In this document: positions 17,840-24,640 of the stretch, one piece after another
Layout: the number at the start of each line of letters is the position of its first letter
Position numbering within the stretch: position 1 is the stretch's first letter
NCBI GenBank assembly: GCA_031290625.1
Contig: JAITND010000035.1
Location: 1-32,941 of the forward strand
Reading direction: 5' to 3'
Source of the DNA: Endomicrobium sp.
GTDB taxonomy: Bacteria; Elusimicrobiota; Endomicrobiia; Endomicrobiales; Endomicrobiaceae
Length of the DNA stretch: 32,941 nucleotides
Translations under genes and position numbers: made by a program
Notes under the pieces: model-generated
Told to the model about the DNA's origin: nothing
The model's input: the letters and a program-made list of their open reading frames with translations, nothing else
Database searches by the model: none

Positions 17840-18781
17840 TCACCTTACCTCGCCCCTTATTTGCGAAATTTGAGCGTCTTTTTCTGCTATTATTTTTTCC
17901 AGACGCGATACTTCTTCACACGTAAGCCTAACTACTTTTGATATTCTTGATTGCATATCATCATTTTGTAGTTCCATTTCATTAATTTGTTTACGTAATT
18001 GTATGTTAGCTACTTTTGATATTCCTAACATAGTCGCCAATTTGCATCCTAACATATTAAATCTATTTATTCTTGCTACTTGACTTTCTCTTGCTTCTCT
18101 TTCTTCTTGTACTTGTTGTTGTAACCGTAACCGCGCTACTTCTACTTCTTCTTTTGCTTGGTTTACTTGCACCAATTCTCTGCTATTTTGCACTTCTAAC
18201 CGCGCTACTTGTTGCACACTATTTGCTTCTCTTAATTGCACTAATTCTTGTTGTAACCGCACTACTTGCGATCTTAACTGTTCTACTTCTTCTTCTTTTG
18301 CTTGGTTTACTCGCACCAATTCTCTGCTATTTCGCGCTTCTAACCGCGCTGCTTGCGCGTTATTTGCTTCTCTTACTTGCGGTTGTCTTTTTTGGAAGTC
18401 TGATCCTAGGAAGTCTAATCCTAGTGGACTTGCTTCTACTAGATCTTCTCGTGGAGCTTCTACAATTATTGCTCCTGGCGGCACGATTCCTTGTGATGGT
18501 TGCGGGTTCATCATAAGTGATGCGAAGCGTCCACCACCCAATGATGTTCCATCAAGCGATGTAATTGGCATTCCTTCAAACGGCGTAGTTGGGACTGATG
18601 AAGTAAGCGGTGGATGACTTCCAAATAATCCATGAGTTAAAGATCTGAATATTGAACCGCCATTACGCCCATGCAACTGGATGCCTTTCAGTTGAGCTTG
18701 CCCTTCAGCAACAAAAACAAACAAACTTAATGTCATCGCCAAAAGAGTAATTTTTAATACTTTATTGCCATATTTTTTCAT
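17840..18781 (-). CDS. Exported coiled-coil protein with internal duplication
   Basis: I cannot name this 313-residue protein. It has a signal peptide (MKKYGNKVLK, hydrophobic core, then VAEGQAQ near residue 30). Residues 31-130 are rich in Gly, Pro and Ser and probably unstructured. Residues about 135-235 are a Glu/Arg/Gln-rich coiled coil built from two copies of a 47-residue unit starting REAN at 137 and 184, each carrying a NSRELV-x-VNQAKEE core. A shorter coiled coil follows at about 260-310 (IQLRKQINEMELQ, EVSRLEKIIAEK). A ribosome site GGAG lies 8 bases before the ATG. It is likely a periplasmic or surface structural protein; the duplication suggests its length can evolve by repeat gain or loss. 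Confidence 0.7.
   Translation of the reverse strand: MKKYGNKVLKITLLAMTLSLFVFVAEGQAQLKGIQLHGRNGGSIFRSLTHGLFGSHPPLTSSVPTTPFEGMPITSLDGTSLGGGRFASLMMNPQPSQGIVPPGAIIVEAPREDLVEASPLGLDFLGSDFQKRQPQVREANNAQAARLEARNSRELVRVNQAKEEEVEQLRSQVVRLQQELVQLREANSVQQVARLEVQNSRELVQVNQAKEEVEVARLRLQQQVQEEREARESQVARINRFNMLGCKLATMLGISKVANIQLRKQINEMELQNDDMQSRISKVVRLTCEEVSRLEKIIAEKDAQISQIRGEVR
18091..18373 (-). repeat. Tandem 141-base (47-residue) coding repeat
   Basis: The coiled-coil gene contains two diverged copies of a 141-base unit beginning at 18373 and 18232 on the minus strand. Each encodes REAN followed by a RLE-x-x-NSRELV-x-VNQAKEE core. The second copy fades toward its end. Confidence 0.7.
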
Positions 18782-21016: not shown

Positions 21017-21684
<668 letters not shown>

Positions 21685-21761: not shown

Positions 21762-23729
21762 TTACTTTTGCACCGCTATCTTTTTTACTTGTTTATTTCC
21801 TAGCAGGGTTTTTACAACTACAAAATAAACTCCGGGGGCTATACGGTTTCCGTCTTGATTTCTTAAATCCCATTTTACCATTCTTCTTTTTTCCGCCGCA
21901 TACGTCTCTTCAGTTAAATCGCTTGCGTCAAAAGATTTTACAAACTCGCCTGTTACCGTATAAACGTTTATATTTATTACATCTGTGTGAAAAGGAAGAT
22001 TTGTTATCTTTATATAATCTTTTACGCTTATGCTTACAGGATTTGGATAACAAACAAAATCGCCAATATTATTTGGAGGTATAAGACCTAAATTTAAAAC
22101 AAGTTTGCCTTTGCCGTAAGTATTGTCAGGAGAAGATTGTATTTGTTTTGCATAACCGACGACTTGATTTTTTAAATCAGCGACAGTTGTTCCGGTACTT
22201 AAACTTAACAATAAAGCGGCGGCTCCGGCAACGTGAGGAACTGCCGCAGAAGTCCCTCCAAAGCTTTTATACCCGCGCGAAGCTGTGGTAACGCCCGTAG
22301 GCGCGACTATTTCAGGTTTTAAAAGGAATGGATTGCGCACAGGTCCTCTGGAACTATAATACGCTATAGGACCTGAACCATAATTTGAAACATTTACAGC
22401 TCCAACAGTTAAAGCCTTGCGCGCATCCGCAGGCATACATAAAGATGACTCGGGGTTTCTATCAATAGGATTTTCAACAACGTCCCCCGACGGATTTTTT
22501 TTGGAAAATATTAATCTCATACATCTTCCGTTTCCGTCTCGCTTTCTATCTTTATTCTTCTGAATTTTTATTTTTAACCTATTAGGGCGAATATGGTTAT
22601 TAAACGTAACATTTGTCGCCCTATTATCTACGAAATTCGTACGACCTATAAATGCATCATCTTGCTTATATACAAATATGTCATAACTGCTATTTCCCAT
22701 ATTATTATAATCGTCCCACATTAAAGTAATATCCGCATTTGCGGGAACATTAACATCCAAATATTCGCTTCCGTTGGGAAACTTTGTAAAGTTTGTTTCA
22801 GATTTTTGAAAAGTTCCAAACCATGAACAGTCGGCTTCATTCCCAGCCGCAATAACAGATAAAAATTTGCCTCCATCAAAACCTTTATCAATACTCGCAT
22901 CTATACCATCCAAACCTGCCATAAAACTTAACGGAATACCAAAACCTACAGAACAACTTACAATTTTTATTTTTTCATCCGAACAATACTTCAACGCGTT
23001 TTGAAACTCTACTATATTAGCAATTTTACATAAATACATTTTAGCTCCCGGAGCTATATCGTAAACTATTTCAGCGCATGCAGAACCGTGAATATCGCCG
23101 ACAGCTGAATTTATGGGCTGCCGATCAGCCGTAAAATCAACAGCAATAAGATTAGCGGAGGGCGGAAGCTCTCCGCGGTTTTGTAAATCTAAATAACCTC
23201 TAAAACCTTTATCTATAACGGCAATTTTTACGCCGGCTCCGTCAACGCCGTCTAAAACAAATTTAGCAGCGTTGATTGCATCTCTGCCTTCGCTGACAGT
23301 TTCCATAGGTTTCGCATGGTCGCTTATATCCGCATAGTATACGCCCGATACCTTTTCAAGCTCTGGTATCAGATCTATAGGGACATACGCTATAAAGAAA
23401 CTTTTTGATTTAACATATTCTATATTGCGCGCAATAAAAAAACTTGTATCCGCATTATCAGAGTCGCCGTCAACCGGATAAAAAATAACTTCAACTTTAC
23501 CGTCCAAATGAGAATCATCAGGGGTTTCAACAGATTGTTCTTGTTCGGAAACGCCTTTAAGGTAACCATGAACTTCATCTTTTGATGAAAACGCAGCGTC
23601 AGTAGCACGCCATTGTTCTTTTACAGAAGCATTTTTTAGGCGTTCTGTTATAACAATACCTGAGGCATAAGATAGGAAAACGACTAAAACAACCAAAACA
23701 GACTGGATTTTAAACCTTATATTTCTCAT
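21762..23729 (-). CDS. Exported subtilisin-like (S8) protease with C-terminal sorting-type domain
   Basis: This 655-residue protein starts with a signal peptide or anchor (hydrophobic residues 9-27). The peptidase S8 domain covers about 155-515. The catalytic triad is Asp173 (IAVIDKGF), His214 (GDIHGSACAE) and Ser494 (FGGTSAAVPHVAG), and the oxyanion Asn is 297 (AAGNEAD). A region of about 150 residues between Asn297 and the Ser motif could be an inserted beta domain. The last 95 or so residues (CYPNPVS, VYTVTGEFVKSF, KWDLRNQDGNRIAPGVYFV) match the FlgD-like/type IX sorting-type C-terminal domain. It shares 4 bases with the upstream PorV-like gene. The role may be secreted or surface proteolysis. 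Confidence 0.88.
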   Translation of the reverse strand: MRNIRFKIQSVLVVLVVFLSYASGIVITERLKNASVKEQWRATDAAFSSKDEVHGYLKGVSEQEQSVETPDDSHLDGKVEVIFYPVDGDSDNADTSFFIARNIEYVKSKSFFIAYVPIDLIPELEKVSGVYYADISDHAKPMETVSEGRDAINAAKFVLDGVDGAGVKIAVIDKGFRGYLDLQNRGELPPSANLIAVDFTADRQPINSAVGDIHGSACAEIVYDIAPGAKMYLCKIANIVEFQNALKYCSDEKIKIVSCSVGFGIPLSFMAGLDGIDASIDKGFDGGKFLSVIAAGNEADCSWFGTFQKSETNFTKFPNGSEYLDVNVPANADITLMWDDYNNMGNSSYDIFVYKQDDAFIGRTNFVDNRATNVTFNNHIRPNRLKIKIQKNKDRKRDGNGRCMRLIFSKKNPSGDVVENPIDRNPESSLCMPADARKALTVGAVNVSNYGSGPIAYYSSRGPVRNPFLLKPEIVAPTGVTTASRGYKSFGGTSAAVPHVAGAAALLLSLSTGTTVADLKNQVVGYAKQIQSSPDNTYGKGKLVLNLGLIPPNNIGDFVCYPNPVSISVKDYIKITNLPFHTDVININVYTVTGEFVKSFDASDLTEETYAAEKRRMVKWDLRNQDGNRIAPGVYFVVVKTLLGNKQVKKIAVQK

Positions 23730-24640
23730 TTAAATTCTACTCTAAGAGAAAATACGCTCATATTGCCAAGCTCGCCGTATGGAAGCCATGCGTAATCTAT
23801 TGAAATTGTTTTCTTTATGTTTATTCCAAACCCAAACGACAAATTTCTTTTATACCATTCCCCAAGAGAATTATTATTGTTATTGATTGGACAGCTATAT
23901 CCGCCTCTTAAAAAAAACACTTGGTCTCTGTTAATCTCAAAAGCGCCTTTAAGCTGTATTATTCCGTCAAAAAAAGTTTTCAATTCAAAACCAATATCAA
24001 AAGATTCGTCTAAACTATTTTTGTAAGAAATATACGCGTTGCATGGTAAATTGTATTTATCCGCTTTAAATCCAACATTTTCCAATCCGCCGGATAAAGA
24101 CCAGTAAGCGCTTGGTAAATACAAAACCGCAAGATCAATAGCCATACCCGAAAGAGAACCGCCGTCAATATTATTCTTAACGTATTTCATACCGGCACCG
24201 GCAATAACTTCTTTGGAAATTTGCCGTCCGGCATTTATCTGCGCGCAGGAATCGTCAGCGCTAAAAAAACCGTCTTTTACATAGTCCCCATCGGAAGCCT
24301 CTATTGTTCTATCCATATTGCCATAATCCAAACCGTCGTACATAATACTTAAAACGGCTTGTTTTATAGGAACTGCAAAATAAACGCTATTGTACGACAC
24401 GTCTTGAAAATGCGAGGCGTGAGTTGCTTGAATATTATATTTATCTACTAATCCCAAGACCGCGGGATTTGGCATAGAAGCGTTCTTCCCAAATGATGAC
24501 ATTGAAGCAAGAGACGCTTGAATCGCATTTTTTGGAAGTTTTAAAAAATCAAAGACAGTCATTCCCGAAGCTGCGGGAAACGCTTTATTTAAAAACAAAA
24601 TAAAGACCGACAAGACAATAAAAAAAAATTTTTTAGTCAC
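23726..24640 (-). CDS. PorV/PorQ-like outer-membrane beta-barrel protein
   Basis: The 304-residue protein starts at a GTG, with a signal peptide (MTKKFFFIVLSVFILF to FPAAS). Its remainder shows alternating beta strands with aromatic girdles, ending in VFSLRVEFK with a terminal aromatic, as outer-membrane barrels do. The early pattern (residues 35-65: asymmetric small-residue stretch, NPAVLGLV, then strands beginning YNIQATHASHF) is that of the PorV/PorQ family within the FadL-like superfamily. In Bacteroidota PorV works with type IX secretion to deliver proteins with C-terminal sorting domains. The next gene encodes just such a protein and overlaps by 4 bases. The family call is from pattern recognition and was not verified. 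Confidence 0.7.
   Translation of the reverse strand: MTKKFFFIVLSVFILFLNKAFPAASGMTVFDFLKLPKNAIQASLASMSSFGKNASMPNPAVLGLVDKYNIQATHASHFQDVSYNSVYFAVPIKQAVLSIMYDGLDYGNMDRTIEASDGDYVKDGFFSADDSCAQINAGRQISKEVIAGAGMKYVKNNIDGGSLSGMAIDLAVLYLPSAYWSLSGGLENVGFKADKYNLPCNAYISYKNSLDESFDIGFELKTFFDGIIQLKGAFEINRDQVFFLRGGYSCPINNNNNSLGEWYKRNLSFGFGINIKKTISIDYAWLPYGELGNMSVFSLRVEFK

What the first reader, a model, noticed from the sequence alone, without database searches (positions are those of the whole stretch)
21762..24640. Subtilisin-type protease with sorting-like C-terminal domain paired with a PorV-like protein
An S8 protease with a complete triad ends in a domain like those of type IX secretion cargo, and the overlapping upstream gene encodes a PorV/PorQ-like outer-membrane barrel. 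In Bacteroidota PorV escorts such cargo. A dedicated cargo-plus-PorV pair outside Bacteroidota, in a reduced symbiont-like genome, may represent a minimal or divergent secretion route and a candidate factor acting on the host or on neighbouring cells.
Basis: partly seen in the sequence, partly recalled or inferred. Interest (0 to 1): 0.65.

Follow-up and report, generated by a model that had tools for sequence, protein, structure and literature searches.

The report
Type IX-like secretion in a symbiont
A bacterium that appears to live inside termite-gut protists carries a protein-digesting enzyme next to its own outer-membrane carrier, and its genome also encodes the giant export pore that such carriers use in Bacteroidota; almost the whole phylum Elusimicrobiota shares this export kit, apparently without the motor known to drive it.

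Summary
On the minus strand, a 304-aa PorV/PorQ-family barrel gene (23726-24640) overlaps by 4 bp a 655-aa S8 protease gene (21762-23729). The protease has a conserved triad and ends in a type IX (T9SS) sorting-like domain (CTD). The window's genome (1.18 Mb, about 89% complete) belongs to Elusimicrobiota, Candidatus Endomicrobiellum group. SprA is found in 254 of 295 phylum genomes sampled and PorV family in 271. The same CTD ends many unrelated proteins, often next to a PorV gene. Within the genus, intact CTD proteins occur only where SprA is present (12/16 versus 0/26). The GldM/PorM motor was not found in any of 295 genomes above its cut-off, and GldL not in this genome. Most likely this is a divergent T9SS-like translocon with a dedicated carrier (SprA, PorV, CTD cargo), energised by something other than a recognisable PorLM motor. 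A 2024 review says T9SS genes are absent outside FCB phyla; I found no open-licence paper describing this in Elusimicrobiota. It is not filed as a complete T9SS.

The parts
23726..24640 (-). PorV/PorQ-family 14-stranded outer-membrane carrier (304 aa, GTG start, signal peptide), first gene of the pair
   Evidence: NF033711 4e-25, NF033709 5e-23; profile hits 6h3i_F PorV at 1e-18; AlphaFold pLDDT 79, 14 strands; best PDB fold matches are the two PorV chains
21762..23729 (-). S8 (subtilisin-like) protease with signal peptide, propeptide, catalytic domain and C-terminal sorting-like domain; overlaps PorV by ATGA
   Evidence: PF00082 4.5e-24; triad D173/H214/S494 invariant in 16 relatives; overlap read directly
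21765..22082 (-). C-terminal sorting-like domain (CTD), residues ~550-655, ending KKIAVQK
   Evidence: TIGR04183 24.0 bits (cut-off 23) when scanned alone, PorZ tail 4.6e-13; profile A4 hits PorZ 5m11 2e-9, PorU 6za2 1e-7, RemZ CTD 8glj_D 9e-5; PorZ is the only PDB fold match at E<0.001
23280..23546 (-). propeptide of the protease (about residues 62-150)
   Evidence: conserved in relatives; profile finds stand-alone or degraded copies beside some relatives' proteases

Best explanation
The pair is a dedicated cargo-plus-carrier unit of a divergent, reduced type IX-like outer-membrane translocon. Proposed steps: (1) protease and PorV cross the inner membrane by Sec (both have signal peptides, read from sequence). 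(2) PorV inserts in the outer membrane and docks on the lateral gate of the single SprA homologue encoded elsewhere in the genome. (3) The protease's CTD binds PorV loops inside the SprA pore. (4) The PorV-cargo complex leaves SprA and the protease becomes surface-exposed or is released. The components are shown by homology, synteny and co-loss; steps 2-4 are inferred from F. johnsoniae. Energy must come from something other than a recognisable GldL/GldM motor, or from one too divergent for the profiles.
For: SprA homologue in the same genome; the phylum SprA profile hits F. johnsoniae SprA 6h3i at 2e-40. A second CTD protein/PorV-TPR pair exists in this genome; in sister Endomicrobiellum it is CTD-PorV-SprA-ComF consecutively (L103, L104, L105, L107, L081, L082). 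PorV is directly upstream of the S8 gene in all relatives with sufficient flank. The CTD is at the extreme C-terminus of unrelated proteins (S8, M6 metalloprotease, Kelch, others) usually beside a PorV gene. SprA in 254/295 and PorV in 271/295 genomes. In the genus, intact CTD ORFs in 12/16 SprA+ and 0/26 SprA- genomes (Fisher 1.6e-7); the remnants in SprA- genomes are broken. Fold matches to PorV and PorZ.
Against: SprA (112 vs 200 bits), PorV (82 vs 90) and the CTD within the full protein (18.4 vs 23) fall below curated cut-offs. The CTD fold also resembles FlgD Ig domains. Eleven same-family genomes without a SprA hit nevertheless have PorV, including well-covered G048, G116 and G008; G048 also has the S8 gene. 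Co-loss is confounded by genome reduction. Known T9SS needs a motor, and none was found. No secretion data.
Confidence: 0.75

Rival explanations
1. A complete, ordinary T9SS is present, with PorL/M/K/N simply too divergent or in the missing ~11% of the assembly.
For: The genome is ~89% complete; SprA and PorV are also below cut-off, so motor proteins could be too. GldK, GldN, PorU, PorP and SprE were not searched.
Against: GldM: 0 of 295 phylum genomes over cut-off, 4 marginal matches to the C-terminal part of the profile only, and none at E<=1 in this genome, while SprA is found in 254 and PorV in 271 by the same method. GldL: none in this genome.
Confidence: 0.3
2. The SprA homologue serves outer-membrane or LPS assembly rather than cargo export, and PorV/CTD pairs work without it (CTD as a general Ig-like surface-binding domain on a FadL-like barrel).
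For: sprA is divergent from lptF/lptG in 69 of 100 loci; LptD was reported absent from all Endomicrobiaceae (PMC11257099); some genomes with PorV/CTD lack a SprA hit.
Against: In sister species CTD-PorV-SprA are consecutive genes; CTD and SprA are co-lost in the genus; the CTD profile hits the RemZ CTD solved inside the SprA translocon (8glj_D).
Confidence: 0.12
3. The protease is a periplasmic or outer-membrane protease whose C-terminal Ig domain is only a structural or binding module, and the PorV neighbour is a porin in the same operon.
For: The CTD fold is generic Ig-like; FlgD domains score similarly.
Against: Strict C-terminal position in unrelated proteins, PorV adjacency, PorZ/PorU as best hits, SprA co-occurrence.
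Confidence: 0.08

Closest known systems
Type IX secretion system of Bacteroidota (F. johnsoniae SprA-PorV translocon, PDB 6h3i/8gl6/8glj; P. gingivalis Sov/PorV/PorU/PorZ)
   Same: SprA homologue, PorV/PorQ carrier, CTD with PNP...G...W...GxY...K pattern at the extreme C-terminus of Sec-exported proteins
   Different: Elusimicrobiota, not Bacteroidota or FCB; SprA ~1770 aa against ~2400; no GldM detected in the phylum and no GldL in this genome; many PorV paralogues paired with cargo, some fused to TPR repeats
Type B CTD / PorP-SprF dedicated carrier pairs of F. johnsoniae (PMC12618676)
   Same: Cargo genetically linked to its own carrier gene
   Different: Here the carrier is PorV/PorQ family and the CTD is type A-like; in Bacteroidota all type A cargo share one PorV
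Subtilisin-like S8 peptidases
   Same: Catalytic core and triad
   Different: ~120-aa insert between the oxyanion Asn and the Ser motif, plus the C-terminal CTD

Membership tests
Type IX secretion system | SprA/Sov outer-membrane translocon | tested here: met
   TIGR04189 1e-32, three stretches found in the genome scan lie in model order, below curated cut-off; phylum profile to 6h3i_A 2e-40
Type IX secretion system | PorV/PorQ-family carrier | tested here: met
   NF033711 4e-25 and NF033709 82 bits vs 90; 6h3i_F 1e-18; fold 8gl6_F 6e-13; 185/295 genomes have a member over cut-off
Type IX secretion system | Type A CTD at the C-terminus of cargo | tested here: met
   TIGR04183 24.0 bits as an isolated domain (cut-off 23; 18.4 in the full-length scan); 24 of 27 phylum CTDs match TIGR04183 at E<=0.01
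Type IX secretion system | PorL/PorM (GldL/GldM) inner-membrane motor | tested here: not met
   GldM none in own genome, 0 of 295 over cut-off; GldL none in own genome; no Bacteroidota positive-control genome was available
Type IX secretion system | PorK/PorN ring, PorP, PorW/SprE, PorU sortase | not tested
Type IX secretion system | CTD-dependent export shown experimentally | not testable with these tools
   needs bench work
Peptidase S8 (subtilase) | Asp-His-Ser triad and fold | tested here: met
   PF00082 4.5e-24; D173, H214, S494 invariant

The most novel reading that the evidence does not exclude
A whole phylum outside the FCB group, Elusimicrobiota, uses a SprA/PorV/CTD export route without a PorLM-type motor, with multiplied PorV carriers each paired to its own cargo; in flagellate endosymbionts it is pared down to one translocon, two carriers and two cargoes and then lost. 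This would mean the translocon core predates or outlives the motor.
Probability: 0.45. Interest if true: 0.88.

Novelty: new variant of a known kind. Interest (0 to 1): 0.72.

Why it matters
A 2024 review (PMC11285876) states T9SS may occur in other FCB phyla and that its genes are absent from all other bacterial phyla; these data contradict that for Elusimicrobiota. If no PorLM motor exists, it tests which step really needs energy (release of the PorV-cargo complex, per PMC10994853) and whether another machine can supply it. The symbiont series, from free-living relatives with many carriers to reduced genomes with none, is a natural experiment in dismantling a secretion system and points to one proteolytic enzyme as a likely surface or secreted factor of an intracellular symbiont.

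Tried and rejected
Pfam gave no hit for SprA or for the window PorV; NCBIfam did. phmmer of single PorV or SprA against PDB found nothing relevant, and the PorV profile from close relatives alone also missed; the more diverse profile hit PorV. TolQ/ExbB as a substitute motor: one copy in this genome, but present equally in SprA-less genomes, so no link is shown. Anti-phage protease reading: only generic subtilase and weak IetS matches, rejected because of the CTD, signal peptide and PorV neighbour. Plasmid origin: no match. Two CTD alignments failed on coordinates and were redone.

Full report
WHAT IS THERE. The two ORFs are exactly at the stated coordinates on the minus strand. The PorV-like gene starts at 24640 (GTG) and its TGA stop overlaps the protease's ATG as ATGA. 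The protease scores 4.5e-24 on Peptidase_S8. Asp173, His214, Asn297 and Ser494 are invariant in 16 relatives. Its last ~95 residues are weak against T9SS tails in the whole-protein scan. Scanned alone they pass the TIGR04183 cut-off (24.0 vs 23 bits) and hit the PorZ tail at 4.6e-13.

WHERE IT LIVES. The window is contig C31 of a 1.18 Mb, 55-contig, ~89% complete genome. The best SprA relatives with names are Endomicrobium and Candidatus Endomicrobiellum, up to 94% identity in Ca. E. porotermitis, i.e. Elusimicrobiota, Endomicrobiaceae. Literature describes Endomicrobiellum as intracellular symbionts of termite-gut flagellates with reduced genomes (PMC11257099, PMC12483993). In PMC11257099 the terms 'secret', 'protease' and 'peptidase' occur zero times in the main text.

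THE BARREL. The 304-aa protein matches PorQ at 4e-25 and the PorV/PorQ family at 5e-23; all 17 close relatives match both. A diverse profile hits F. johnsoniae PorV in the SprA complex at 1e-18. The AlphaFold model (pLDDT 79) has 14 strands, and Foldseek ranks the two PorV chains first, ahead of FadL-type channels.

THE TRANSLOCON. The genome encodes one SprA/Sov homologue of 1767 aa. A profile from 19 Elusimicrobiota relatives hits F. johnsoniae SprA (6h3i) at 2e-40. Across 295 genomes of the phylum, SprA is found in 254 (178 of 190 high-quality) and PorV family in 271, with 185 over the curated cut-off. Large-genome members have many PorV candidates, up to 60 in the first look. The window genome has two PorV-family genes and, with a phylum CTD profile, two proteins with a terminal CTD plus one weak hit (C16).

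LINKAGE. PorV is directly upstream of the S8 gene in every relative with enough flank. The second pair of this genome (393-aa CTD protein plus a 584-aa PorV-TPR protein) is, in sister Endomicrobiellum, immediately upstream of sprA: CTD-PorV-SprA-ComF in L103, L104, L105, L107, L081 and L082. In deeper lineages a CTD-bearing M6 metalloprotease and a PorV lie near sprA. Of 100 sprA loci examined, 69 have lptF/lptG next to sprA, 77 have comF, 14 have both a PorV and a CTD protein within 9 kb; many loci are truncated and some are duplicates, so these are lower bounds. CTDs sit at the extreme C-terminus (0-8 residues from the end in all intact ORFs listed) of otherwise unrelated proteins.

CO-LOSS. 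In the genus (42 genomes) 16 have SprA. Intact CTD ORFs are found in 12 of these and in 0 of 26 without SprA; the four hits in SprA-less genomes are fragments or carry stops (Fisher 1.6e-7). Genome reduction is a confounder, and the counts are not corrected for phylogeny. Some SprA+ genomes are also losing the protease (stops in G064, G072, G118), so the enzyme is dispensable before the translocon is.

THE MISSING MOTOR. GldM: none at E<=1 in this genome and 0 of 295 over cut-off, with four marginal hits to the C-terminal part of the model. GldL: none here. PorK/N, PorU, PorP and SprE were not tested, and no Bacteroidota genome was at hand as positive control. One TolQ/ExbB gene is present but does not track SprA. 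In F. johnsoniae the motor is needed to release the PorV-substrate complex from SprA (PMC10994853), so this route either has a different energy source or a motor the profiles miss.

CTD IDENTITY. The phylum CTD profile hits PorZ 5m11 (2e-9), PorU 6za2 (1e-7), the RemZ CTD solved inside the translocon (8glj_D, 9e-5), but also FlgD (4e-7). PorZ is the only PDB fold match below 0.001, though the model is modest (pLDDT 72). Endomicrobiaceae are reported to lack a flagellar machinery (PMC11257099), so a FlgD role is unlikely.

COMPARISON. T9SS is described as Bacteroidota-restricted (PMC4793230) or FCB-restricted (PMC11285876). My eight paper searches found no description of it in Elusimicrobiota; only open-licence papers are held, and automated annotation of such proteins in databases is likely. 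Gene-linked cargo/carrier pairs are known for type B CTDs with PorP/SprF carriers (PMC12618676); here the carrier is PorV/PorQ-like. Because a defining feature (the motor) was tested and not met, I call this a T9SS-like translocon, not a T9SS.

CAVEATS. Eleven same-family genomes lack a SprA hit yet have PorV; G048 also has the S8 gene. They may be assembly gaps or real exceptions. Function, topology, release versus anchoring, and any effect on the host are inference.

Noticed in passing
window 21364-21684 (+): 106-aa ORF matching only the C-terminal end of an aminotransferase class I/II (PF00155 4e-11), probably the remnant of a decayed gene just downstream of the protease.
   Followed up: partly
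L055:837-1202 (+); also L060:984-1351, L062:3882-4115 (-), G058:C44:390-575: A stand-alone, signal-peptide-bearing copy of the protease's propeptide lies between PorV and the protease in one relative, with degraded or tandem copies in others: possibly a separate inhibitor or folding helper.
   Followed up: partly
L014, L118 and 69 of 100 sprA loci: sprA is divergent from lptF/lptG and followed by comF across much of the phylum, while LptD was reported absent from all Endomicrobiaceae (PMC11257099). The reason for this synteny is unexplained.
   Followed up: partly
Elusimicrobiota genomes such as G006, G041, G012: Large expansions of PorV-family genes (dozens of first-look candidates per genome) beside what appears to be a single sprA.
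   Followed up: no
L118:3671-5311, L164:2802-4619, L169:3071-4681: M6-family metalloprotease with a CTD next to a PorV gene near sprA in several lineages; resembles Bacteroidota 'T9SS-dependent M6-like' proteins.
   Followed up: partly
L142:3572-4981: PorV domain fused to a CsgG/LpoB-like domain; the window genome's second PorV is fused to TPR repeats.
   Followed up: no
L015:10031-14517 (-): Sulfatase-fold membrane enzyme and two glycosyltransferases (one heptosyltransferase family) upstream of the second cargo/PorV pair, possibly linked to surface glycolipid modification.
   Followed up: no
window 17840-18781 (-): 313-aa secreted-looking, repeat-rich coiled-coil protein with no Pfam match.
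   Followed up: no
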